The notes below the pieces were generated by a model. That model was not told where the DNA came from. It saw nothing but the letters and a program-made list of their open reading frames with translations, and searched no databases. A stretch of DNA of 64,000 nt, taken from Rhodoferax sp. Its GTDB lineage: Bacteria; Pseudomonadota; Gammaproteobacteria; Burkholderiales; Burkholderiaceae_C. Below are positions 1,893 through 15,491 of this stretch, one piece after another. Positions within the stretch are counted from its first letter, which is position 1, and the number at the start of each line of letters is the position of its first letter. Where the stretch lies: positions 1 to 64,000 of the forward strand of contig JARLJH010000023.1 of assembly GCA_031291305.1 (NCBI GenBank), read 5' to 3'. The position numbers and the translations under genes were made by a program.

Positions 1893-2061
1893 AATGTCGC
1901 AACGATGTCTGCCCGAGTGCCTGCGAAAGCACGCCAAGCCCTGCCCGCTAGCGTTGGCGGGGCTCGCCCAGCCGCCTGCAAGGGCATGTTCTGGTACTGT
2001 GTTTAGAGAAGCGCGCAAGGCTTTAAATAGAAGTGAATAGCTGAGCAGAGTGAGGCAAGCA

Positions 2062-4233
2062 ATGACTGAACACGTTCAAGTCGGTGGCCTTAAGGTCGCC
2101 AAAGTCCTGTTCGACTTCGTGAACCACGAAGCCATTCCCGGTACCGGCCTGACCGCCGACCAGTTCTGGGCCGGTGCCGACAAGGTCATCCACGACCTGG
2201 CGCCGAAGAACCGAGCCCTACTCGCCAAACGCGATGATTTCCAGGCGCGCATCGACGCCTGGCACCAGTCCCGGGCCGGTCAGGCCCACGACGCCGTGGC
2301 TTACAAAGCCTTCCTGCAAGACATTGGTTACCTGCTGCCAGAAGCGGCGGATTTCCAAGCCACTACCCAGAATGTCGACGACGAGATCGCCCGCATGGCC
2401 GGCCCGCAGCTGGTGGTGCCGGTAATGAACGCGCGTTTCGCCCTCAACGCCTCGAACGCCCGCTGGGGCTCGCTGTATGACGCGCTCTATGGCACCGATG
2501 CCATCAGCGAAGCCGACGGCGCGGAAAAAGGCAAAGGCTACAACAAGGTCCGTGGCGACAAGGTCATCGCCTTCGCCCGCACCTTCCTCGATGAAGCCGT
2601 GCCCCTGGTCGCCGGCTCCCACGCCGACTCGGTGGGCTACAAGATTGTCGACGGCAAGCTGGTGGTCAGCCTCAAGGGCGGCACCAACAGCGGCCTGCGC
2701 AACGACGCCCAGCTGATCGGTTTCCAGGGAGAGGCCGCGGCCCCTGCCGCGATCCTGCTGAAGAACCACGGCCTGCACTTCGAAATCCAGATCGACGCCG
2801 GCAGCCCGGTCGGCCAGACCGACGCCGCCGGCGTCAAGGACCTGCTGATGGAAGCGGCCCTGACCACCATCATGGACTGCGAAGACTCGGTCGCCGCCGT
2901 CGATGCCGATGACAAGGTGGTGATCTACCGCAACTGGCTCGGCCTGATGAAGGGCGACCTGGCGGAACAGGTCGCCAAGGGCGGCACCACCTTCACCCGC
3001 ACGATGAACGCCGACCGCACCTACACCGCCGTCGACGGCAGCGAACTGAGCCTGCACGGTCGCTCACTGCTGTTCGTGCGCAACGTCGGTCACCTGATGA
3101 CCATCGACGCGATCCTCGACAGCCACGGCAACGAAGTCCCCGAAGGCATCCTCGACGGCCTGCTCACCAGCCTCGCGGCGATCCACAGCCTCAACGGCAA
3201 CAGCGTGCGCAAGAACAGCCGCACCGGCTCGGTCTATATCGTCAAGCCGAAGATGCACGGCCCGGAAGAAGCCGCGTTCACCAACGAGCTGTTCGGCCGT
3301 ATCGAAGAAGTCCTGAACCTGCCGCGCAACACCCTGAAAGTCGGGATCATGGACGAGGAGCGGCGTACCACCGTCAATCTGAAAGCCTGCATCAAGGCCG
3401 CCAGCGAGCGTGTGGTGTTCATCAACACCGGCTTCCTCGACCGTACCGGCGACGAGATCCACACCTCCATGGAGGCCGGCGCGATGGTGCGCAAGGCGGC
3501 CATGAAGACGGAGAAATGGATCGGCGCCTATGAGAACTGGAACGTCGATATCGGTTTGAGCACCGGCCTGCAAGGTCGCGCCCAGATCGGCAAGGGCATG
3601 TGGGCCATGCCCGACCTGATGGCGGCGATGCTTGAACAGAAGATCGCCCACCCGCTGGCCGGCGCCAACACCGCCTGGGTCCCGTCGCCCACCGCGGCCG
3701 CGTTGCATGCGCTGCATTACCACAAGGTCGACGTGTTCGCCCGCCAGGCCGAACTGGCCAAGCGCGCGCGGGCTTCGCTCGACGATATCCTGACCATCCC
3801 GTTGGCGAGCAATACCGACTGGTCGGCCGAGGACATCCGCAACGAACTGGACAACAACGCCCAGGGCATCCTCGGCTACGTGGTGCGCTGGATCGACCAG
3901 GGTGTCGGTTGCTCGAAGGTGCCGGACATCCATGATGTCGGCCTGATGGAAGACCGCGCCACCCTGCGCATTTCCAGCCAGCACATGGCCAACTGGCTGC
4001 ACCACGGTGTCGTCACTGAGGCGCAAGTCAAAGCCACCTTCGAACGCATGGCCGCCGTGGTGGACGCGCAAAACGCTGGTGACCCGCTGTACAAGCCGAT
4101 GGCAGGGCACTTTGACACGTCGATGGCGTACCAGGCGGCTTGTGATCTGGTGTTCAAGGGCTTGGCACAGCCCAGTGGCTATACCGAGCCGCTGTTGCAT
4201 GGCTGGCGCTTGAAGGTGAAGGCTGCGGGTTGA
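2062..4233 (+). CDS. glcB: Malate synthase G (mosaic 3' end)
   Basis: Condenses glyoxylate and acetyl-CoA to malate (glyoxylate/glycolate metabolism). It has 723 residues, the normal length for the G isoform. Family segments are visible: [18 protein letters not shown] (metal/acid cluster), [15 protein letters not shown] (conserved Arg) and [20 protein letters not shown] near the catalytic Asp. Start ATG 2062 follows GAGG at about 7 nt; the in-frame GTG at 2050 is less likely. Up to about residue 655 the protein reads like Pseudomonas GlcB. From [10 protein letters not shown] to the stop, and through the downstream repeat, it matches the Comamonadaceae-type fragment at 8630-8992. The gene looks intact but recombinant. 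Confidence 0.95.
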
Positions 4234-4307
4234 TGGCTTGATGTGCAGATTGCTATCAAAGTAATATCTGCTTGCCCAGGTAATTACTGGGCCAGAGCCT
4301 GATTTTT
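3870..4307 (+). repeat. Left copy of glcB-3' direct repeat
   Basis: The last ~360 bp of glcB plus ~70 bp downstream recur in direct orientation at about 8630-9066. The two copies agree at most positions but are clearly diverged: many third-position differences in the first half, closer agreement after about 4020. Together they bracket the 1399-residue gene. They are too diverged for a fresh tandem duplication and look like homologues from two related lineages. Confidence 0.85.
4252..4307 (+). repeat. Dispersed palindromic element, copy 1
   Basis: AT-rich left flank with GCTAT, then CTGCTTGCCCAGG, a hairpin GCCCAG (4274-4279)/CTGGGC (4287-4292), and a right flank GCCAGAGCCTGATTTTT. Shares flank and stem layout with the copies at 9011, 11863, 40130, 47649 and 53181 and with those inside genes. 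It lies directly after glcB. Confidence 0.7.
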
Positions 4308-4329
4308 CTTGTAAGTTTGTAAGTCTTGG

Positions 4330-4357
4330 AAACGGCATCAGCGGATGCCGTTTCTTT
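4330..4357. terminator. Hairpin between convergent glcB and Avs-like gene
   Basis: Perfect 10-bp stem AAACGGCATC (4330-4339) / GATGCCGTTT (4344-4353) with a 4-nt loop, followed on the plus strand by a short T-rich tract. It sits 10-40 bp from the stop of the minus-strand gene. It is suitable as a bidirectional terminator, with weak U-tracts on both sides. Confidence 0.65.
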
Positions 4358-4366
4358 GTCAATTAA

Positions 4367-7300
4367 TCAACTCTCAAATTTCTCCGGCTCATCATATTTG
4401 TTGACTGTGTGTCCACCTGTAATGTGCCCGTGTCCATCCATAACGTAGACCGCGCTTTGAACTGAAATTCCTCCAACATGTGCCGACCCGTTCCATGCTG
4501 ACTTTTCAGCAAGCAACGCCCACACCAACGCATAGCTTTGTGCTTCCATGTACTGGAGCATTGCAGTTTGATTAACCATCAGCATCCTTCCACCTGACGA
4601 GGAACTTCTGAAGATGCACCGCCCATCCCTGCCATGAATTTCCATTGCACCGTTTGATGTCAATCTCGGCGCGGAAAGCGCGCCACCCAGTACGGCCCCA
4701 AGTTCACGGTGCAATGTCGGAGCTGGTAACAGCACGTGTTTTGACTCATTGGAAACTTCACACACGGGCAAAAAGAAACGCTGCCTCAGTTCACTCACCC
4801 ACGTTTCGTTGCGTCGACAACTTTCATCAATCTCAGCAAACGCAGGATGCCATGGATACTCTGATATCCAACACTGATGCACTTCAGGCACCTCACAACC
4901 GTCGCCAAAGAAGTCTTTGCCACGAAGGACTTTCAGTTTTTTTGAGAGCTGTGATTTTGGAATCAAAAAAACACGCACATCAATCCACTGCGACATCTGC
5001 GCCGCCTTGAATCGTTCTACCCCAAATCCAGGCTCTTCGTCGAAAGTGAGGTGCGCTTTCAACACAATCCATTTCTGCTGCTTATGCTCCACTGTGAGGT
5101 ATGGCTCGAACAACGAAAAAGCAGAACTCACCCAATTTTGCTTTTCTGCAATACAGTCCAGCGCTAAAACAGGGTTTGGAATATCCCACCATGATGGAGG
5201 GCCATCTTCTTGGTCTGGCAATGTTTCCCGTGGGCCAAGCGCTGCGCCGGGGTCGTAATCTCTGGCGTGCAACTCCCATGCGCCACGAAGCGGGCGGCTG
5301 GCTTCATTCCACTCCTGAAATAGCAGAGCGTCTGACAGATGCCCCAGGTATTCGTGCAATCCGATCCATTGGTATTTCTTGGAAATACGCTCGATTTTTT
5401 TGCTGTCTCGCCCGCGCCCGGAATAGCCCAAACCACGTTCAAAATCGGCATAGCGATCAGGTGTCCAGCCGAGTTCGATGATGCATTGCCATATATAGCG
5501 CCGGGCAAATCGCGCATCGTGCTCATGACCGCCCCGTCCGAGTCCGAAGGTTTTCGAGTCAGCTCGTTCATCGTCCACAAAGTGGTGAACCGCAGACCCC
5601 ATCACGTAACGCCCGAAGTCGCCATAGTGGCCCATCTCCTCTGGTACAAGAGAACTTGAAATCGACCCGTATGCACGGTCAGCGTCATACACCTGAACCT
5701 GCTCCTCAGTCCAGACGACTGGCTTTGACTTGTGGATGCCCTTTTCCGACACGCCGACATGTATGGAAGGCAGTGCACCCGTTGCACACGCATGTCGAAC
5801 AATGAATGCTGCGTACTCGCGCTGCAGAATATGTGGAGCGACCTCGTTTTGTTGCCAAAATCGACTCAGGACAAATTCCGAAACTTCCTTTGCTTCCAGA
5901 GAACCGAGGTACGGAAGCACGCCACACATGACGGCCAGCAACCGCTCCTTGACGTAGGGGTCATTGACTTCCCAGAAAGCTTCAAGCAACCGCACGCAAA
6001 CTGCACCAGACCGGCTTGCAACCAGTATTCTGATGGCGATATCGGTCGCCCTGTCTCGCAATTCTCGATTAGGTGAGCTTGTCAGCCACAACAACACAGT
6101 TGCAGCAAGGCGTACTTGTTCATCTGACGCCTTACCTGCTGATGCGTCCGCCCAGTAAAGAAATGGCGCGACGATGCTCTCTCCAGTTTGATCTGTTGAG
6201 CTCTCCAGTGCGAGGGGAACTGTCCAGCTTAATTCGCGTTGCGGAAGCTCCAATTTGAGCAAGTGACGATGCAAAAAATCTGCATTCAAAGGATGCGCCG
6301 GGACACATGAGAATTGAAGCACTCGCACCCAAACCGTGCGCTGATAGCTCTGGTTATTGGCCCACAAGGCAAAGAGACGAACAATTTTGGTGTCGTCGTG
6401 CTCAAGAATCCGCCACGCAAGCGCATCCAGCCATGCAGACCAGAACTTCCCCTTGGCTTGCGATCGCGCCCATTCGTCATGAATCAACGATGCAATTGGA
6501 CACTCGACCAACTCAAGCCCGACGGCATCCGGCAGCAATAGCGCATACGCAAACAGCTGGGGTTCCGCAGCCCAATCCAGCTGTCCATAGACAACGAGGT
6601 TTGGCAAGATGCTCGAATGCCAATACGCCAGCCACTTTTCTTTTGTCAAGAAATTTTCTAATGCGACTTGAGCAATCCGAACGTCGCTAAACCGCTCATA
6701 TTGCAGGCGAACTTGTGTCCCATCCTCTGCTTCTATCTCCTGCAATAACCCCTCAGAATTCAGGTGACGGTACAAAGATTGGGAAGCCGTTGGGACGGCA
6801 AAGTGTCTTAGACAAATTGCTTCAACCTCAGCTGCACGCATCCGTCTTGCGTCTGATGTCGCAAGCGTCGAGATAATTTCGGCGACCGCACGTTGAGTTG
6901 CGGTACATGGACAGTCAATTCGTGTTTCAATTTCCTCTGCAATGCGTGCTTCCCACGCGGTCAATACACCAACGAAGGAAACGGGACCAAGTGGCAAGGT
7001 TCTACCTCGGTAGGCTTCACACAGTGTCTTGAGAAATAGCGGGTTTTGAAACTCCGCATTCAATGTCGGGAACTGATGGCTGGTGACCTTATAGCCATCA
7101 AAGTAGGCTGTCACAGCGGCATGAAATTCGAGATCGAACCCATGATGCTTGATCTGGAGAGCATCGCTCAAAAGCACCGGCGGGATGGATGAATCAAGAC
7201 AGTCGGAACGACAAGACACCAGCAATCTGATGCCAGCAAACTCCTTCACCAATGCGACGAATGGTGGTAACTCCCGTCGCCACAAGCCACGTTGTGGCGA

Positions 7301-8566
7301 CTCATTGATCGCATCAACCATCAATATGCACGCATTCCCCGTGATGGCCGCCTGCATCGACAGGCAGGCCAACAAGTCTCGCATTGACCCGTTCCAGTCT
7401 ACGAGCGCCGGAATCTGACCACCCAGCACATCTTGAGAGGCGAAGCGCTCGCCAACCACCAATAAACATGCGCGGCCTTCGGCCAAAGTCGATCTCGCCA
7501 AACTGGCCAAGAGATGACTTTTACCGCTTCCAGCCTCCCCAGTCAGAACCCAAACAGATTGCTGTTTGGCGTTGCTAAATTTTTTGACACCTTCCAGAAT
7601 TTCTTCCGTCTGGTGTAGCGCCTTATCCAACTTCGAGTTGCGGCGAAAGTCGTAAATTGCATTCCCATCTTCCTCCCCAGGCGCACCCATCGGAAACAAG
7701 CGGTTAAGAAACTTTTCAGTCTCATTTGACAAGGTGGTAAGCGCTTTAATCAAGTCGTCGCCTTGCTCAACGAGACTTCCTCCCTGAAGCGCTTTCAACA
7801 TCGCGTCGTGCGTCTGTTGAAGCAACGATAGAGATTCTGATCGCTTCAGCTTTGACATCTCTCCTGGCAGATTTTCAAAAACATGCCGCCACGCGATGAC
7901 CAGCTTGGAGCAGGCCTGACGATGACCAGCCCGAGCCTTTTCTGAAGCTGTCCAAAACCCGAGCGCGACTTCAGCTGACGTGTTCTGATGGAGTTGTGGC
8001 GTATACCGATCATGCAGCTGCTCTATCGCTACTTCTGTCTGCCTTGCCACCCAATCCAGAGAGAATTGTGGGTAAGAAAACCAATAGGTCAGGATGTGAC
8101 CGGCCTCGGGTTTTAGTAAGTACCTTAGGAGCTCGGAATATCCAACCCAGTCGACTACCAACGCCGAATTGAGTGCATGCCAGCTCGCCACAAGCGCGGT
8201 CCACTTTTTGAGTTGCCCCGGAGTTCGATCCAACGGCACGCAGACGAAATAGCGTGTCAATTCGGGATGTTTGTCGATGGCCGTTTTGACAGATTCATCG
8301 ACCTGCCGCCATTGCGTTGCATCCAACTTTGTAAAGAACTTCGATTGGAGACCGACATGTTGACCCGGCACCGTAAATGCAATCGACTCCACCCCGCCAT
8401 CACCGCCACGCCCCTCGATTCGATCAAGTCGTTGGAGCCTCTCGCCAACCATCATTGGCAAAAGTTGCACGGAAAGCTCTTCGAATCCCTTGTCCTGCTT
8501 GCCTTCCAGAGTTCGAATTTCTGAAAATTTGATATTGGGTTTGATGGCCGCGTTGCTTCTTTTCAC
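4367..8566 (-). CDS. Avs-like STAND NTPase with N-terminal nuclease
   Basis: A 1399-residue cytoplasmic protein. Residues ~25-110 look like a PD-(D/E)XK/Mrr-type nuclease: helix [11 protein letters not shown], then GGDGGVES (Asp56) and LQSKFF (Gln75, Lys77), a QxK variant. Residues ~310-470 form a P-loop NTPase: Walker [12 protein letters not shown] (343-353), Walker [11 protein letters not shown] (414-423) and sensor LLVSCRS (448-454). About 900 helical residues follow, as in a STAND sensor region, with [11 protein letters not shown]. Nuclease + STAND ATPase + long sensor is the plan of Avs (AVAST) antiphage proteins, which bind phage proteins and activate the nuclease. The exact Avs type is not assigned. 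The gene is alone, AT-richer than its neighbours, and flanked by the glcB-3' repeats. Defence function is inferred. Confidence 0.65.
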
Positions 8567-8629
8567 TGGCGATCCCTTTTCTTGATTTGTTGGTTTTCGG
8601 ATGCTACTCGCTCAGGCTCTCAAAGAGTT

Positions 8630-8992
8630 CTGCGCTACGTGGTGCGCTGGGTTGCCCAAGGTGTGGGCTGCTCCAAGGTGCCCGACATCCACAACATCGG
8701 CCTGACGGAAGACCGCGCCACGCTGCGCATCTCCAGCCAGCACATGGCCAACTGGCTGCACTATGGTGTGGTCACCTTGCCCCAAGTCAAAGCCACCTTC
8801 GAGCGCATGGCTGCTGTGGTGGATGCGCAAAACGCCGGTGACCCGCTCTACAAGCCGATGGCTGGGCACTTTGACACGTCCATGGCGTACCAGGCAGCTT
8901 GTGATCTGGTGTTCAAGGGACTGGCGCAACCCAGCAGCTATACCGAGCCGCTGCTGCATGGGTGGCGGTTGAAGGTGAAGGCGGTGGGTTGA
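8630..8992 (+). pseudogene. glcB 3' fragment (about 120 C-terminal codons)
   Basis: Encodes the malate synthase G C-terminus from [20 protein letters not shown] to the stop, aligning with 3870-4233 of the intact gene. Upstream of about 8630 the reading frame continues into unrelated sequence before the Avs-like gene, so the first ~600 codons are missing. It has no plausible start or function. It is entirely Comamonadaceae-like and abuts the next native gene, so it probably marks the resident glcB locus left by the recombination that brought in 1-8.6 kb. Confidence 0.9.
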
Positions 8993-9010
8993 TGGCCTGA
9001 TGTGCAAATT

Positions 9011-9066
9011 GCTATAAAAATGATATCTTCTTGCCCAGGTAATTGCTGGGCTACAGGCCAACTTTC
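9011..9066 (+). repeat. Dispersed palindromic element, copy 2
   Basis: GCTATAAAAATGATATCTTC, then TTGCCCAGG, hairpin GCCCAG (9033-9038)/CTGGGC (9046-9051), then CTACAGGCCAACTTT. Nearly collinear with copy 1 because both follow a glcB 3' end. It forms the right edge of the direct repeat. Confidence 0.7.
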
Positions 9067-9187
9067 CTCACAAACTCCGACACCACCACAGTCCGCTCCC
9101 GGTTTGACCACACAAGGCAGCGATGCGGCATTCATGGTGCGCGAGAATCAAACCCTCACCCACCACCCGCACCAGCGCACCTCCGAG

Positions 9188-11815
9188 ATGTCCACCCGCA
9201 ACGCATCCACCGCCCGCAAATCCCTGGCCAAGAAGGTCAAAAAGACCAAGACCGCCAAGGCAATCGAGCCCCGCCTGTCGCGCACACGCCGCCCGCCGGA
9301 GCTGGAAGTCGTCGACTGGCAGACCGCGCTGCGTCGCCAGTTTGGCCGCGAGCAAAACTTTGGGCTTGAAAACCTCGGAGCAGAGCCGGTGTTTTCCGAA
9401 TTCCGGGTGCACAACCCGGACAACAACACGCGCTACCGCGTGACCATTCGCGGCCAGGCACCGGGGCACAACACTTGTACCTGCCTGGACTACGCCACCA
9501 ACGACCTGGGCACCTGCAAGCACATCGAATTCACACTCGCCAAGCTGCAAGCCAAGCGTGGTGGCAAGGCGGCCCTGGCGCGCGGTTTTCAACCCGGCTA
9601 CAGCGAAGTCTGGCTCGACTATGCCGGTGAGCGCCGCGTGCGCTTCAGCGCTGGCGCGGACTGCCCGGATGCCTTGTTGCGGCGAGCCAAAACGCTGTTT
9701 GATGCCGACGCAGGCTGGGCCTTGCGCAAAGACCAGCAAGGCGCGTTGGAGCCGTTGTTGCAGGCCGCGCAGACCAGTGGCCACGAGTTGCGCTGTCGCG
9801 ATGATGTCTGGCCCTTCATTGCCGAACTGCGCGACGCCGAGCACCGCCATGCCGCCCTGGCGCAGGCCTGTCCCAAGGGCATCAAGGACAAGGCCTTGAC
9901 GCGCCTTTTGAAGGTCAAGCTCTACCCCTACCAGGCCGAAGGCGCGCTGTTTGCCGCACAGGCCGGGCGCTGTCTGATTGGCGACGAAATGGGTCTGGGC
10001 AAAACCATCCAGGCCATTGCAGCCGCCGAGCTGTTTGCGCGCCACTTCGGCGTCAGCCGGGTGCTGGTGGTGTGCCCGACATCGCTCAAGCACCAGTGGA
10101 AGAACGAGATCGAGCGCTTCACGGATCGGACCGTGCAGGTAATCCATGGCCTGCGCGCGCAGCGCCAGATGCAATACCGCGAAGACGTGTTCTGCAAGAT
10201 CACCAACTACGAAACCCTGGTGCGCGATGCCGACCTGATCGATGCCTGGGCCCCCGAGCTGGTGATCGCCGACGAGGCGCAGCGCATCAAAAACTGGAAC
10301 ACCATCGCCGCGCGCGCCCTCAAGCGCATCGCCAGCCCCTACGCCGTGGTGCTGACCGGCACGCCGCTGGAAAACCGCCTGGAAGAGCTGATCTCCATCG
10401 TCCAGTTCGTCGACCAGCATCGGTTGGGCCCGACCTGGCGGCTGCTTGACGAGCACCAGACCCGCGACGAGACCGGCCGCGTCATCGGCTACCGCGCGCT
10501 GGATCGCATCAACCAAACGCTGGCGCCGGTGATGCTGCGCCGACGCAAGGCCGAGGTGCTGACGCAGCTACCAGAACGTGTGGACAACCGCATCTTCGTG
10601 GCGCTGACACCTGAACAGCGGGTACACCATGACGAGAATGGCCTGATCGTCACCCGCATCGTGTCGCGCTGGCGCCAGACCGGCTACCTGTCGGACAGCG
10701 ACCAGCGCCGCCTGCAGTGTGCCTTGCAGAACATGCGCATGGCCTGCAACAGCACCTTTCTGCTGGACCACGAAACCGACCACGGCAACAAGGTCGATGA
10801 GCTGATGACCCTGCTCGACGAGTTGCTGGAAGACCCCGCCGCCAAGGTGGTCGTCTTCAGCCAGTGGCTGGGCACGCATGAGCTGATTCAGCGCCGCCTG
10901 GCCTTGCGCTCTCAGGGCAAAGGCCAGCCGGTCTGGAAGCATGTGCTGTTCAGCGGCAGCGTGCCCGGCGACAAACGCGGCGCGCTGGTCGACCAGTTTC
11001 ACAACGAGCCGGATTGCCGCTTGTTCCTGTCCACCGACGCGGGCGGCGTCGGGTTGAACCTGCAACACGCTGCCGCCGTGGTGATCAACATGGACTTGCC
11101 GTGGAACCCGGCAGTGCTGGAGCAGCGCATCGGCCGTGTGCACCGCATGGGCCAGTCGCGCGGCGTGCAGGTGGTCAACTTCGTCGGCCAGGGCAGCATT
11201 GAGGAAGGCATTCTGTCAATACTGGCCTTCAAGAAGTCGCTGTTCGCAGGCGTGCTGGACGGTGGCGAAAACGAAATCTTCCTGCAAGGCACGCGCCTGT
11301 CCCAATTCATGAAAAGCGTGGAGCAAGTGGCCGGGGCGATTGGCGAGGTGGAGGCGGATGTGGAATCTGGCACCCCCACACGCGCAGCTCAAGGCGCGCC
11401 TGCCGAGCCACCAGCACTAGCACCAGTGATCGAACTGGCCGCCATGGATACCGCTGCGGCCACACCCGAGGCCCCGGCCGAAGTGCCAACCCAGGCCGAA
11501 CCGGTTGCGGCAAGCCCAGTGCCCGTCGATGCCGCGCCGCCAACCGGGGCGGCCGATACCACGCCGGTCACCGAGGTGGCCAGCCCAGCGACAGGCGGTG
11601 CTGCCGCAGACCCTTGGGCCGCGATTCTGGAAGCCGGTGCCGCGCTGCTGCAAGGCTTGGCTGCATCGCGCGGCGCCGATGGTGCCAGCGCCGCCAAGGC
11701 ACCCATTGCCATCGAACGTGACCCCGTCACCGGCCAAGCCAGTGTGCGCCTGCCGCTGCCCGACCCGGCTGTGTTGCAGCGGCTGGCCAAGGCGTTCGAG
11801 CCCTGGTTGCGCTAG
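9188..11815 (+). CDS. SWIM zinc-finger SNF2-family helicase
   Basis: An 875-residue SF2 ATPase. After a Lys-rich N-terminus comes a SWIM finger, CTC (97-99)...CKH (110-112). The SNF2 core has DEMGLGKT (266-273), a DEAQ box at 362-365 where many relatives have DEAH, TGTPLEN (390-396), DAGGVGLNLQ and RIGRVHRMGQ (about 620-665). The last ~150 residues are Ala/Pro-rich and probably disordered. It likely translocates on dsDNA; the bacterial role is unknown, with repair or transcription recycling possible. ATG 9188 is chosen for the basic N-terminus; ATG 9134 is also in frame, and neither has a strong ribosome site. Confidence 0.85.
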   Translation: MSTRNASTARKSLAKKVKKTKTAKAIEPRLSRTRRPPELEVVDWQTALRRQFGREQNFGLENLGAEPVFSEFRVHNPDNNTRYRVTIRGQAPGHNTCTCLDYATNDLGTCKHIEFTLAKLQAKRGGKAALARGFQPGYSEVWLDYAGERRVRFSAGADCPDALLRRAKTLFDADAGWALRKDQQGALEPLLQAAQTSGHELRCRDDVWPFIAELRDAEHRHAALAQACPKGIKDKALTRLLKVKLYPYQAEGALFAAQAGRCLIGDEMGLGKTIQAIAAAELFARHFGVSRVLVVCPTSLKHQWKNEIERFTDRTVQVIHGLRAQRQMQYREDVFCKITNYETLVRDADLIDAWAPELVIADEAQRIKNWNTIAARALKRIASPYAVVLTGTPLENRLEELISIVQFVDQHRLGPTWRLLDEHQTRDETGRVIGYRALDRINQTLAPVMLRRRKAEVLTQLPERVDNRIFVALTPEQRVHHDENGLIVTRIVSRWRQTGYLSDSDQRRLQCALQNMRMACNSTFLLDHETDHGNKVDELMTLLDELLEDPAAKVVVFSQWLGTHELIQRRLALRSQGKGQPVWKHVLFSGSVPGDKRGALVDQFHNEPDCRLFLSTDAGGVGLNLQHAAAVVINMDLPWNPAVLEQRIGRVHRMGQSRGVQVVNFVGQGSIEEGILSILAFKKSLFAGVLDGGENEIFLQGTRLSQFMKSVEQVAGAIGEVEADVESGTPTRAAQGAPAEPPALAPVIELAAMDTAAATPEAPAEVPTQAEPVAASPVPVDAAPPTGAADTTPVTEVASPATGGAAADPWAAILEAGAALLQGLAASRGADGASAAKAPIAIERDPVTGQASVRLPLPDPAVLQRLAKAFEPWLR

Positions 11816-12607
11816 GCGGAGGGGGCGAGCGGTGGGTGGCAGGCATAACGCAGCCGACAAAAACTACAAAATTAAGAGCTGCTTGTGCATATTTGACAAG
11901 GGCTAGAGGCCTATTTTTCATGAAACCTCTCGGTCAAACGGCATCTGCAGCTACCGTTTTGCACGTTGACCCCACAGCCTGCCGCCTACCGCATCGGTTG
12001 GTTGCCAGCGGGCACTGCACGCCCAGATTGATGAGCCGATCATGCGCAAACCCCTGACCGTGCGTCTGGATGCAGACTGCTGAGTTCGGTAGCCTTCACA
12101 GTGAACGTTAAATTACCTCCTATCAGGGCAAAGTTCAGCCAACGTCATGCTTCAATTCTGTGTACCTAGGCAGTCCACGCACATGGAAGCAGAGCGGGCC
12201 ACAGGCGTCACATAACCGTCCTGTTGGTGCACCCGATGGGCATTTTGACCTGCGCCTGCGCTTGGCTCGTTTGTTGGCCCTGAGTGTGCATCTAGGAGGA
12301 ATTTCAATTTGCGTCAAAGATCGTGATCAAGGTGAGGCAGCAAGCGTGCGGCAAAAGTGCATAACGCTGCGGTTTTTGTCTCGTTTGGCAGACGCCGATT
12401 GGCCTGCGCGGCTTCGAGATATCAGCCAAAACATCGATAATCCTCACATCTATCAAGAATTATTGAAATCGTTTGTCAAGTTACAAGCAAAAAGGGCGAC
12501 CTACTGCGAGTAAGCTTGAAGGGTTTAGGTTACATGCATCAACAACTTGGTGCGCTTTTGTTGTCGGGCAGTTCGGGGGGCAATCACCACAACATGGAAA
12601 AGTGTTT
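11816..12607. other. 792-bp intergenic region, no convincing gene
   Basis: Holds a palindromic element copy (11863-11918). Beyond it I see no credible gene. A frame of 117 codons at 12160-12513 has no recognisable motif or ribosome site. A 13-codon frame at 12042-12083 (MRKPLTVRLDADC) resembles the start of a ribbon-helix-helix antitoxin and then stops. It may be degraded accessory DNA plus the promoter of the FimV-like gene. Confidence 0.5.
11863..11918 (+). repeat. Dispersed palindromic element, copy 3
   Basis: ACTACAAAATTAAGAGCTGC, then TTGTGCATATTTGACAAG and GGGCTAGAGGCCTATTTTT. This is the cleanest example of the family's two flanks: left (TA/GAGCTGCTT) and right (GGGCTAGAGGCCTATTTTT). 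It lies 48 bp after the helicase stop. Confidence 0.75.
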
Positions 12608-14515
12608 TTGAATACCAAGATCATTCATCGCGTCACCTTCTTGGCGACGTCAATTGTTTTGTCAACTGCTGGCCATGCTGTCACTTTAGGTGATTTGCGC
12701 GGTTCAGCCGTGTTGGGTCGGCCTTTGGATGTCTCGGCATGGATTAGCGCTGGTGACGGGGAAACGATTTCTGAAGAGTGTTTGTCTGCCCAACTGATGT
12801 TTGGGGATTTCCCACAGCCCTCCCCCAAATTGAGCCTCCCAAAATCTGTAACGAGTGCTGCAGCGGCGTCTTTGGTGCGCATCACATCCTCTGTTGCAGT
12901 CAACGAACCGGTTGTCACGGTTGTGTTGCGATCCACTTGCGGTGCTACCACCTCGCGTAGCTACGTGTTGCTGTCTGATTTTCCTGCGACAGATCTGCCC
13001 ATCGTCAATGCGTTGCCTGCTGTTAAACCAGCAGGGAGCTCTACACCAAGCGCAAAAGCAACATCACCGGCTGTGACAGATTTGCAGCGGCCATTGGCCT
13101 CGACATTGACACCCACCGCCAAAGCTTCGATCCCTGTGGTTGCGGTGAGGCGCAAACCGGCGAAGCTAGCTGCGGTTGCCGCCCCGAAAAAGAAAACTTC
13201 GTCTGCGTTGCACCTGGTGAACCAGACGCCGCCTCATGCTTTAGCGAGTGCCGAGGCAGACAGTGGACAACTGGTCTTGAAGCTTGATTCGGAGATGGTC
13301 ATTCTGACCCCGGCAGAAATGGCGGCCATGGCGGCGCGGCGAGTCTCATTGCCGACATTGGAGCCCGAGGGCGACGTTTTGAAGCAATCAGCGCAGCTTG
13401 AGACTTTGCAAAACGACCTCAAGGCCTTCAAAGTTCTCACTGCCAAGAATCAGGCCACCCTGGTTTCACTTGAAGCAAAGCTCCGTCAGGCCGAGGCCGA
13501 GCGCGCTCCCGTGATGTGGCTCTATCTGCTGGCAGGGTTGCTGGTGGTTGCGTTAGGTGCTCTGGCTTGGGTACTGCGCCAACAAAAAAACGCCAAGGAA
13601 GCCTGGTGGCATCAGGCGGACGAGTACATGCCAGAAACGATGGGGCCTGTCGCCAGCGATGCGTTGTCTGAGCCTGCCACGATGGTCTTCCCCTTGGAGA
13701 AACCCGCTGTGCAGGATGCGCCCCTGGTTGACCTGGATTTCGATCTGGATGATCTCAGTGCAACATCAACATCGGTTAATGCGCCGCTGGATGTGACATC
13801 ACCAAACCTTTTCGGCGGTATCCGCGACTTGAATTCGGAGGCCATTTCTGACATTCGTCAACAGGCAGAGTTTTTTGTTTCTCTAGGCCAGACATCGCGT
13901 GCGATCGACTTGCTGCATCGGCAGATCCAGGAGAGTACCGAACCCAATCCTCTGGTGTATTTGGATTTGTTGACGCTGTATCACTCACAAGGCATTAAGA
14001 CCGAGTTTCGCGAACTGCGCACGCACTTCAATCAGTTGTTCCACTGTATGGCACCTGATTTTCCGAGCTACCACCAAGAGGGGAAAGTCCTGCTGGGCTA
14101 CCCAGAGTTATTGGACGAGCTGGTCCGTGCCTGGGCAAACGAAGACGCTGTGGCCTTTCTGGACGGGTGCATTTTCCGCAAAGACTCGTCGGCCCTGCGC
14201 GTAGATTTTGACCTCGCAGCGTTCCGCGATTTGCTTTTGTTACGCACCCTCGTTAAAAAACCCAGAGGCGACGCTCAGAGTATTCCAGCTACGCCTTTGG
14301 ACGTGAAGGAGCATCCAAATCATTTGGTCGATTTTCCTGAACGAGATGCGATGCCCTACACAGGCAGTTTGGTGTCTGAGCAGGCAACCATGCCTGATGC
14401 CATGCCGATGGCACAGTCGAGCTGGTTTGCACTGCCACCCGTGCCTACTACCGAGGAGTTGGATATCGAATTCCCGATCGACATGCTCAAGTCCACGGGA
14501 GCCCCTGGTAACTAG
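12608..14515 (+). CDS. FimV-like membrane protein, full length
   Basis: A 635-residue envelope protein. It has a signal peptide (about residues 1-24, ending AGHA), then TLGDLRGSAVLGRPLDV, which resembles the N-terminal region of FimV/HubP polar proteins. A Thr/Pro/Ala/Lys-rich linker, a coiled-coil stretch near residue 265, one transmembrane helix (VMWLYLLAGLLVVALGALAW) and an acidic cytoplasmic tail follow. The tail contains a helical repeat-like segment (QQAEFFVSLGQTSRAIDLL) like FimV's C-terminal region. Start TTG 12608 is inferred: it follows GGA at 9 nt and gives a signal peptide equal in length to the paralogue's. GTG 12602 is also possible. A role in type IV pili or pole organisation is inferred. 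Confidence 0.65.
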   Translation: MNTKIIHRVTFLATSIVLSTAGHAVTLGDLRGSAVLGRPLDVSAWISAGDGETISEECLSAQLMFGDFPQPSPKLSLPKSVTSAAAASLVRITSSVAVNEPVVTVVLRSTCGATTSRSYVLLSDFPATDLPIVNALPAVKPAGSSTPSAKATSPAVTDLQRPLASTLTPTAKASIPVVAVRRKPAKLAAVAAPKKKTSSALHLVNQTPPHALASAEADSGQLVLKLDSEMVILTPAEMAAMAARRVSLPTLEPEGDVLKQSAQLETLQNDLKAFKVLTAKNQATLVSLEAKLRQAEAERAPVMWLYLLAGLLVVALGALAWVLRQQKNAKEAWWHQADEYMPETMGPVASDALSEPATMVFPLEKPAVQDAPLVDLDFDLDDLSATSTSVNAPLDVTSPNLFGGIRDLNSEAISDIRQQAEFFVSLGQTSRAIDLLHRQIQESTEPNPLVYLDLLTLYHSQGIKTEFRELRTHFNQLFHCMAPDFPSYHQEGKVLLGYPELLDELVRAWANEDAVAFLDGCIFRKDSSALRVDFDLAAFRDLLLLRTLVKKPRGDAQSIPATPLDVKEHPNHLVDFPERDAMPYTGSLVSEQATMPDAMPMAQSSWFALPPVPTTEELDIEFPIDMLKSTGAPGN

Positions 14516-15491
14516 CTGTCTGGCTTGTCCATTCTGCTGGACCGTTTTTACTGCTGCCCTGCTGCCTACTCAGCACCCAGGTTAGTGTGGCCAAAGTGGT
14601 CATCAGCAAACCAGCCAAGAGGTAAACCCATGTCCAGGGAACGCGCTCAGATTCAGCCTGGTGCAGCTTGGACTGGAATTCAGTCAAGCGGACTTCGTTT
14701 TTTTGTGCCAGATCCGTGAGGACCTTGATATCACTTTGCAAGGCTTCGATACGCACGGCAAGTTTCAATGGATTTTCACTGGGTGCTGGGGCTGACAGTT
14801 CCACCGGATGAGGTGTTTCAGCAAGGACCGGCAACACCAGCGACTCGTCAAGCTTCAACACCGGCCTGCTTAGTTCGGACTCCGTTTCAGCCCTCATCGG
14901 TGGCAATGGTCGCTTGGGGCCATTTTGGGCGGATGTTGTCGGCCTAGGTGTGACCGGACCTGTGCGCGTTGTGTGATGGTGAGCCGTTCGTCTCGACGCT
15001 GGCGCTTCGACACCTGCAGCCGTTTGCGACGCCGCTATAGATCCACTGGCAAACGCTGGGGGCAACAACCGTTCGGTGACCGATGCGATTTCTACATGGG
15101 GTAGGTCTGGCGTTGGAAAATTCGTCAATAAAACATAGCGGCGCGTGGTGGTGGAGTCGCAGGTTGAACGTAAAACTACCGTGACGACGGGTTCATTCAC
15201 CAACGAACTTGATTTGATTCTCAGCATGGTCATGGAGACCAATCCTGAATTGACCGGCGTCAACGCAATGGAGGTTGTCAATTGCCGCAGATCGCCAAAA
15301 AAGACTTCGGCCGACATACAGGATGCCAAAACTTCTTCGCCCATGTCGGCCACTACCGGCACAGACAGGTCCAGCGAGCGCCCGATCACAGCGCTACCAC
15401 GCAAATCACCCAGGGTAAATGCATGACCCGTTATTGCGGCACTGGTTAAAACTGCCGTCAAGGCAATAAAATAGCAGCCTCGGTTCTTCAA
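14487..15491 (-). CDS. FimV-like membrane protein, short paralogue
   Basis: A 334-residue paralogue of the preceding gene on the opposite strand. It has a signal peptide (MKNRGCYFIALTAVLTSAAI...GHA), FTLGDLRGSAVIGRSLDL, VVLRSTCDSTTTRRYVLL matching the partner, a Pro/Ala linker, a short coiled coil and a transmembrane helix (WVYLLAGLLMTTLATLTW). It ends about 25 residues after the membrane, so the cytoplasmic FimV-like tail is absent. The 3' ends of the two genes overlap by 29 bp. This suggests an inverted duplication with loss of one tail, or a deliberate short form. Function unknown. Confidence 0.65.
   Translation of the reverse strand: MKNRGCYFIALTAVLTSAAITGHAFTLGDLRGSAVIGRSLDLSVPVVADMGEEVLASCMSAEVFFGDLRQLTTSIALTPVNSGLVSMTMLRIKSSSLVNEPVVTVVLRSTCDSTTTRRYVLLTNFPTPDLPHVEIASVTERLLPPAFASGSIAASQTAAGVEAPASRRTAHHHTTRTGPVTPRPTTSAQNGPKRPLPPMRAETESELSRPVLKLDESLVLPVLAETPHPVELSAPAPSENPLKLAVRIEALQSDIKVLTDLAQKNEVRLTEFQSKLHQAESERVPWTWVYLLAGLLMTTLATLTWVLSRQQGSSKNGPAEWTSQTASYQGLPWT

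What the first reader, a model, noticed from the sequence alone, without database searches (positions are those of the whole stretch)
4234..9066. Avs-like nuclease-STAND defence gene lodged in a glcB 3'-end duplication
One large, AT-richer gene (4367-8566) sits between two direct copies of the glcB 3' end plus downstream repeat. Its protein has a Mrr/PD-(D/E)XK-like N-terminus (Asp56, Gln75-x-Lys77), a P-loop NTPase ([18 protein letters not shown]) and ~900 residues of sensor-like helices. That plan matches Avs/AVAST antiphage proteins. No integrase or transposase accompanies it, so the flanking homology itself may be the way it moves between strains, using glcB as a hotspot. Whether it belongs to a known Avs type or a new subfamily is open.
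Basis: partly seen in the sequence, partly recalled or inferred. Interest (0 to 1): 0.8.

Follow-up and report, generated by a model that had tools for sequence, protein, structure and literature searches.

The report
Divergent Avs2 defence gene at glcB
A single anti-phage gene of a known kind (an Avs2-like sensor joined to a DNA-cutting enzyme) sits right behind a metabolic gene, between two unequal copies of that gene's tail, at a place where related bacteria carry other inserts too, some of them defence genes, which suggests it moves by recombination rather than with its own integrase.

Summary
The 1399-aa gene (4367-8566, minus) is the only large gene between two direct copies of the glcB 3' end (3875-4292 and 8634-9051, 418 bp, 88%). 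It is a divergent Avs2: six PADLOC Avs2 models hit it (best 805 bits) and it aligns along most of the solved Avs2 9o4e, but it misses NCBIfam's Avs2 naming cut-off (496 of 1000 bits). The N-terminus models as a PD-(D/E)XK nuclease whose best structural hit is Avs4; D56 and Q74-x-K76 are invariant in 64 aligned rows. It is thus a known kind of abortive-infection sensor.

The locus is less expected. The only close relative seen (61%, a Burkholderiaceae MAG) also lies beside glcB. Some congeners carry other cargo behind glcB, closed by a shortened glcB tail: DarTG plus a CHAT-AAA-TPR gene in one, an AlbA_2 gene in another, apparently non-defence genes in others. The window's two tails differ mostly at third codon positions, so they diverged as working genes, and the intact glcB is itself an interspecies chimera. 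This supports import by recombination at glcB. The route (one-sided homologous joining, circle crossover, lost integrase) is not shown.

The parts
2050..4233 (+). glcB (malate synthase G), 727 aa, intact but chimeric
   Evidence: Pfam MS domains; first 600 codons 60-65% identical to GlcB in the listed family rows and at best 68% in the order, 3' part 88-95% identical in 150-bp bins to three genus glcB, switch seen
3850..3999 (+). 150-bp stretch of glcB conserved in the compared GlcB; the crossover between foreign 5' and genus-type 3' lies in or beside it
   Evidence: sliding identity against 11 GlcB
3875..4292 (+). left arm: genus-type glcB 3' end plus 59 bp of 3' flank
   Evidence: 418-bp direct repeat, 88% to right arm
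4241..4330 (+). interspersed intergenic repeat (REP-like) after glcB
   Evidence: partial copies at 9000-9051 and 11864-11919; similar copies within 160 bp after glcB in 16 of 67 loci, the window's own included
4331..4353 (.). inverted repeat with T-rich tail between the convergent glcB and avs2 ends; possible shared terminator
   Evidence: read; terminator-like hit at 4340-4352, in a scan that found 7 sites against 5.0 (sd 2.4) in shuffles, so not above chance
4367..8566 (-). avs2-like gene, 1399 aa STAND NTPase with N-terminal nuclease
   Evidence: PADLOC Avs2, PDB 9o4e alignment, tree
8078..8497 (-). codons 24-163: PD-(D/E)XK (Mrr/Avs4-like) nuclease domain; D56 at 8399-8401, Q74-x-K76 at 8339-8347
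   Evidence: AlphaFold model pLDDT 88.5, helix, three strands, helix, strand, helix, strand; Foldseek best hit Avs4 8dgf, TM-score 0.52 on the query; invariant residues in 64 rows
7517..7540 (-). codons 343-350: Walker A GEAGSGKS
   Evidence: nSTAND/NACHT Pfam hits below their cut-offs
7298..7327 (-). codons 414-423: Walker B-like [10 protein letters not shown]
   Evidence: D418, N421, E422 invariant in the 4-row alignment, kept in 87, 87 and 84 of 90 rows
4370..6649 (-). codons 640-1399: C-terminal sensor region; 1015-1387 aligns to 1095-1479 of 9o4e
   Evidence: boundary at 640 is approximate, the region was not modelled here
8634..9051 (+). right arm: truncated genus-type glcB 3' end (to stop at 8992) plus 59 bp flank
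   Evidence: nhmmer 8620-8989 E 1.8e-117
9131..11815 (+). SNF2-family helicase gene, first gene right of the insert (start codon not settled; longest ORF 9002-11815); also found downstream of glcB in some congeners
   Evidence: Pfam; tblastn hits in 4 other fetched loci

Best explanation
The gene is a divergent Avs2-type antiviral STAND protein. Its C-terminal region most likely binds a conserved phage protein (terminase or another phage protein). Binding lets the ATP-loaded central domain oligomerise, which switches on the N-terminal PD-(D/E)XK nuclease; this cuts phage and host DNA and the cell dies before phage release. Domain layout, the modelled nuclease fold and conserved residues are shown here; ligand, oligomerisation, cutting and phage protection are inferred from the family. 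It occupies a recurrent cargo site behind glcB. The cargo most likely arrived as foreign DNA that carried its own glcB tail: the incoming tail recombined with the resident glcB and replaced its end, so glcB stayed intact, while the resident tail was left behind as the truncated downstream copy. One-sided homologous, other-sided illegitimate joining fits best because the left-over tails begin at different places in different genomes; this route is inferred.
For: Avs2: six PADLOC Avs2 models at E 1.8e-87 to 4.3e-242; 9o4e Avs2 aligned over 169-995 and 1015-1387, E 9e-85. Nuclease: model pLDDT 88.5 with the PD-(D/E)XK order of elements; Foldseek ranks Avs4 8dgf first (E 1.9e-5), with EcoO109I and a repair endonuclease among the next; F28 E29 E30 D56 G58 E60 Q74 K76 invariant in 64 rows. 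Function kept: 61% aa identity to L185 over 1077 codons with codon-position differences 341/229/649. Site: L185 has avs2 convergent with glcB and 109 bp from it; G121 has DarT, DarT, DarG, a CHAT-AAA-TPR gene and a DUF900 hydrolase between glcB and a 270-276 bp truncated tail; G253 an AlbA_2 gene before a 247-bp tail. Arms diverged as coding sequence: 43 differences in 357 bp, 30 at third positions, no stop; in G121 28 of 34. Tails start at different glcB positions (profile 219, 316, 353, 383 in the window, G121, G253, G628). glcB chimera.
Against: NCBIfam Avs2 equivalog cut-off not reached. The N-terminal nuclease profile did not match the N-terminus of the solved Avs2 9o4e, only its residues 164-206. 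No phage or ligand evidence. Of 60 downstream loci only 4 have a truncated tail over 100 bp, and 3 a trace of 37-64 bp; G628 and the G647/G648/G256/G217 group seem to carry non-defence cargo. Six other Avs2-like places in the family (L265-L270, four of them in the genus) have no glcB tail in the stretches fetched, so Avs2 is not tied to glcB. In G628 the tail differences are 7, 3 and 12 by codon position, a weaker third-position bias. The window's right tail has more amino-acid changes against L095 than the left (9 versus 5 codons). Tree support for the relation of the two arms is weak (93/0). Which tail is the incomer is not resolved.
Confidence: 0.75

Rival explanations
1. The insert is the remnant of an integrase-borne island that used a site inside the glcB 3' end and carried a replacement tail (as some phages do in icd, recalled), and has since lost its integrase.
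For: Insertion behind a gene 3' end with a replacement tail is the classic outcome of tyrosine-integrase islands (recalled); cargo varies between genomes.
Against: Left-over tails start at different glcB positions, though decay of their 5' ends could blur a common start; no integrase recognised by eye in the window insert or in the ORFs printed for G121, G253, G256, nor by Pfam in the cargo proteins scanned; arms only 88% alike.
Confidence: 0.2
2. A circular DNA that carried a glcB tail and avs2 integrated by one RecA-dependent crossover (Campbell type).
For: Gives exactly two direct tails around the cargo and a tail start set by the piece on the circle; single crossovers of circularised DNA are described (PMC3240628, abstract).
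Against: Needs a circular intermediate, for which I have no evidence (not searched for); it predicts much the same arms, so it is not separable here.
Confidence: 0.25
3. A local tandem duplication of the glcB end took place and avs2 entered between the copies later.
For: Two adjacent direct copies in one genome; the tree puts them together, at 93/0 support.
Against: 12% divergence concentrated at third codon positions means both evolved as coding DNA for long, which a useless truncated tail would not; the same build with other cargo recurs in other species.
Confidence: 0.1
4. Not a defence gene but another STAND regulator.
For: No phage test; Pfam NTPase hits are below cut-off.
Against: Avs2 homology along the protein and a nuclease effector.
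Confidence: 0.04
5. Assembly artefact joining two strains.
For: glcB is chimeric and the genome is a 69-contig draft.
Against: The frame runs through the joint; arms differ by 12%; the same kind of arrangement stands in the single-contig genome G121.
Confidence: 0.05

Closest known systems
Avs2 (AVAST type 2), PADLOC PDLC02161-02166, PDB 9o4e
   Same: Homology along the protein, central STAND NTPase, C-terminal sensor region
   Different: 23-33% identity to 79 of the 80 kept relatives, own deep branch with L185; below the NCBIfam equivalog cut-off
Avs4 nuclease effector, PDB 8dgf
   Same: N-terminal PD-(D/E)XK fold, best structural hit, weak profile match E 0.003
   Different: STAND and sensor parts belong to Avs2, not Avs4 (NCBIfam Avs4 only 11.9 bits)
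Core defence hotspots of Pseudomonas aeruginosa and hotspots of the E. coli pan-genome (PMC10250203, PMC10121019; passages seen)
   Same: Variable defence cargo between fixed core genes, often without mobility genes (29% of cDHS1 and 47% of cDHS2 sites had none, PMC10250203)
   Different: Here the cargo is bounded by a shortened, diverged copy of the neighbouring core gene's tail; the passages seen do not describe that, the rest of the papers was not read
Homology-facilitated illegitimate recombination (PMC3240628; abstract and section list seen)
   Same: One homologous and one illegitimate joint would give the observed geometry
   Different: Described in the abstract as an experimental event, not as a source of defence cargo

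Membership tests
Avs2 | Match to Avs2 profile models over effector, NTPase and sensor | tested here: met
   PDLC02162 covers 11-1382 of 1399 (531 bits); PDLC02164 covers 10-1002 (805 bits)
Avs2 | NCBIfam NF041813 equivalog cut-off (1000 bits), a naming threshold | tested here: not met
   495.6 bits, best stretch 181-997; hence described as a divergent, Avs2-like protein and not as that equivalog
Avs2 | STAND NTPase with Walker A and B | tested here: met
   K349, D418, N421, E422 conserved; Pfam NTPase models only below cut-off
Avs2 | Nuclease effector with catalytic residues | tested here: met
   modelled fold and invariant D56, Q74, K76; activity itself not tested
Avs2 | Homology to solved Avs2 along the sensor | tested here: met
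   1015-1387 to 1095-1479 of 9o4e
Avs2 | Activation by a phage protein, oligomer formation, abortive infection | not testable with these tools
   family knowledge; passage of PMC12931631 on Avs1-4
Defence hotspot | Different defence cargo at the same core-gene junction in relatives | tested here: met
   window Avs2, G121 DarTG, G253 AlbA_2 (the last weak as defence); type III R-M genes in L113 and a DrmMI/type IIG-like gene in L151 behind glcB
Defence hotspot | Enrichment of defence genes over other loci | not tested
   20 cargo proteins were chosen by hand where 645 downstream ORFs had been listed; no background set
Integrase-borne island | Fixed insertion point | tested here: not met
   tail start points scatter, with the caveat that tails may have decayed
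Integrase-borne island | Integrase in the insert | tested here: not met
   avs2 is the only ORF above 140 aa lying inside 4234-8633; no dedicated integrase profile search

The most novel reading that the evidence does not exclude
The glcB 3' end is an integrase-free docking site: cassettes (Avs2, DarTG with a CHAT-AAA-TPR gene, and others) travel between Burkholderiales species with a piece of glcB tail attached, which both guides recombination and repairs the gene they enter, leaving the old tail as a scar. Such tail-bearing cassettes would be a general, overlooked way for defence genes to move without mobility genes, and the scars would let one count and date the events.
Probability: 0.3. 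Interest if true: 0.7.

Novelty: new member of a known kind. Interest (0 to 1): 0.48.

Why it matters
Many defence islands lack any recognisable mobility gene, and how they move is open (PMC10121019, PMC10250203, passages seen). A locus where insertions leave a readable scar, a truncated and diverged tail of the neighbouring gene, makes the question testable by sequence alone: the scars show the joint, the side and perhaps the donor lineage. The Avs2 itself adds a divergent branch with an Avs4-like nuclease fold.

Tried and rejected
One of the two patterns of that scan comes from the nuclease domain, so the share of hits that keep the nuclease is biased upward. Avs2 in whole genomes: 6 of 200 and 3 of 399 in the family (different cut-offs), 6 of 369 in the class, 5 of 89 in the genus, each count with the window's own genome.

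Donor of the foreign glcB 5' part: not found.

Native versus incoming tail: a tree of 71 tails gave no supported answer. G121's own glcB shows no visible chimera against G221. In one search the window's truncated tail was put in out of frame, so its columns there mean nothing; redid it. In one search the L096 rows and the G253 row are mis-registered and were not used.

Empty site: only 10 of 60 loci with at least 2 kb downstream have the FimV-like gene as first ORF of 150 aa or more; the region is variable in most, so the plain junction is seen in only part of the genus. The search for the usual left neighbours in the own genome gave no HAD match and a 37% CaiB relative; the tool warns that an empty answer without a positive control shows nothing, and the genome is a draft.

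G225 has its glcB tails at contig ends and an Avs2-like piece on a third contig; I fetched that whole 3.4-kb contig and found no glcB tail on it, so no link can be shown.

Labels FimV-like, MBL, CaiB, HAD, GAT2, RarD, GcvR and 'blaC' (beta-lactamase/esterase-like) were given by eye from translations, not by a search. DUF4062 for the N-terminus of L075 is by eye.

Promoter scan found none. Literature: 'malate synthase' with 'defense systems' and 'hotspot' gave 0 papers in the held library; that is one search of an open-licence subset. Recalled, not read: the original Avs papers (Gao et al.); Bechon et al. was seen only as a reference.
Full report
WHAT IS THERE. Between 4234 and 8633 the only ORF above 140 aa is the 1399-aa ORF 4367-8566 on the minus strand. 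GC is 51.9% against 64-65% in its neighbours. It is convergent with glcB, 133 bp apart, with an inverted repeat between the two stops. The flanks 3875-4292 and 8634-9051 are 88.0% identical over 418 ungapped bases, E 8e-153. They hold the last 359 bp of glcB and 59 bp behind it.

THE PROTEIN. Six PADLOC Avs2 models match, best 805 bits over 10-1002; PDLC02162 covers 11-1382. NCBIfam's Avs2 model gives 495.6 bits against a cut-off of 1000. By sequence the only PDB match up to E 0.1 is Avs2 9o4e, E 9e-85, in two stretches, 169-995 and 1015-1387. A profile-guided scan of genome contigs kept 80 of 529 relatives, from many phyla. Of these, 79 have 23-33% identity; the exception, L185 from a Burkholderiaceae MAG, is 61% identical over 322-1396 and is cut by its contig end. 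In a FastTree of 36 hand-picked rows the window gene and L185 form one long-stemmed branch (support 1.0) beside three Verrucomicrobia and one Acidobacteriota sequence. Other relatives occur on plasmids (74 records, all under 60% identity); the phage collection gave one record with a partial hit.

THE EFFECTOR. In 64 aligned N-termini, F28, E29, E30, D56, G58, E60, Q74, K76, S92 and P111 are invariant; in the wider set of 90 rows, which holds truncated ones, D56 is kept in 82, Q74 in 80 and K76 in 81. The AlphaFold model of residues 1-210 has mean pLDDT 88.5 and the helix, three strands, helix, strand, helix, strand order of PD-(D/E)XK nucleases. Foldseek ranks Avs4 (8dgf) first, E 1.9e-5, TM-score 0.52 on the query; EcoO109I, a Pyrococcus repair endonuclease and EndoMS follow, with an ASFV RNA polymerase subunit at rank 3 that aligns at 18.6 A rmsd. 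The same profile finds 8dgf at E 0.003 but only residues 164-206 of Avs2 9o4e, so by sequence the nuclease resembles that of Avs4 more than the start of the solved Avs2. Between the window gene and L185, differences by codon position are 341, 229 and 649 over 1077 codons, dN 0.31, dS saturated: the gene has been under selection for function.

HOW IT WORKS (inferred from the family). A passage of PMC12931631 says that the nuclease effectors of Avs1-Avs4 cut phage and host genomes after recognition of terminase, portal or another phage protein, Ksap1. Domain order and catalytic residues here fit that. Which phage protein this one senses is unknown.

THE SITE. In the genus, 51 of 60 and 67 of 78 (asked for at least 80% completeness) genomes have a match to the glcB 3' end; the two sets overlap. 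I fetched the surroundings for nearly all of them (G214, G224, G227, G229 and G254, on short contigs or with weak hits, were not put in) and oriented 69 loci with a glcB 3' end, the window included; 60 have at least 2 kb downstream. A second, truncated glcB tail over 100 bp on the same strand and contig is present in 4 of these 60: the window, G121, G253 and G628. Three more (G648, G256, G217) have traces of 37-64 bp. G647, whose contig starts inside glcB and which is outside the 60, has a tail in pieces. Tail pieces at contig ends or elsewhere, in G641, G212, G225, G213, G649, G648 (a second one) and G234, were not counted. Cargo: window Avs2; G121 two DarT and one DarG (PADLOC and Pfam), a CHAT-AAA_16-TPR protein of 1389 aa and a DUF900 hydrolase, both without a PADLOC hit; G253 an AlbA_2/Schlafen protein (PADLOC only a weak pAgo-type hit, 55 bits); G628 a Crp-type and a TetR-type regulator and a dehydrogenase; G647, G648 and G256 a serine-hydrolase-like gene (by eye). 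Without a tail copy, some glcB neighbours are also defence-like: type III R-M in L113, a DrmMI/type IIG-like gene in L151, a type III restriction subunit in L096, and weaker or candidate-only hits in L095, L118, L138, L145 and one of the two L153 proteins. These 20 proteins were picked by hand, so no enrichment is claimed. L185 has its avs2 109 bp from glcB in the same convergent order; whether a second tail follows is hidden by the contig end. Against a tight link: of the other four Avs2-like hits in the genus three lie on contigs other than those with glcB and the fourth genome, G232, gave no glcB match; these four and two more from the family (L265-L270) show no glcB tail in the stretches fetched.

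HOW IT GOT THERE. Three results bear on it. First, the two tails in the window differ at 9, 4 and 30 first, second and third codon positions, 28 synonymous and 10 non-synonymous codons, no stop; G121's pair shows 2, 4 and 28; G628's, over 180 bp, 7, 3 and 12. So at least the first two pairs diverged mainly as working genes, most simply in different lineages, and were brought together later. Second, the truncated tails begin at different points of glcB, unlike an integrase core site, unless decay has blurred a common start. Third, the window's intact glcB is a chimera: up to about 3850 it is no closer to the genus than to other families of the order; from about 4000 on it is 83-97% identical in 30-bp bins to the nearest congener (L095) but 56-80% to the best outside GlcB (L271); the switch falls in or beside a 150-bp stretch that the compared GlcB share. 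The right flank (SNF2, FimV-like, GAT2 and on) is a neighbourhood seen in part of the genus; the usual left neighbours (CaiB, HAD) were not found in this genome (only a 37% CaiB relative; no positive control). Hence glcB has recombined between species at least once here. A one-sided homologous joining, known as homology-facilitated illegitimate recombination (PMC3240628, abstract), would explain an intact glcB with a foreign tail, the cargo, and a resident tail cut at a random point. A circle crossover explains most of it too. I cannot separate these.

VERDICT. A divergent Avs2-type gene, a new member of a known kind, in a recurrent and partly defensive cargo site behind glcB that seems to be fed by recombination.

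Noticed in passing
window 2050-4233: glcB is an interspecies chimera: about 1.8-1.95 kb of a foreign type (best 68% protein identity, in other families of the order) joined in frame to a genus-type 3' end.
   Followed up: partly
L080:4804-12753 (genome G121): Next to DarTG lies a CHAT-AAA-TPR protein of 1389 aa with a DUF900 hydrolase, without a PADLOC hit: a candidate defence pair. Two DarT genes accompany one DarG.
   Followed up: partly
window 4241-4330, 9000-9051, 11864-11919; L080:10310-10395 and 12890-12975: An interspersed intergenic repeat follows glcB and also flanks the DarTG module in G121, a possible second homology for cassette stacking.
   Followed up: partly
L075:541-4884: An Avs2 relative with a different N-terminus (DUF4062-like by eye), which hints that effectors are swapped within Avs2.
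   Followed up: no
window 12473-15491: Two FimV-like genes (by eye) of unlike sequence face each other right of the insert.
   Followed up: no
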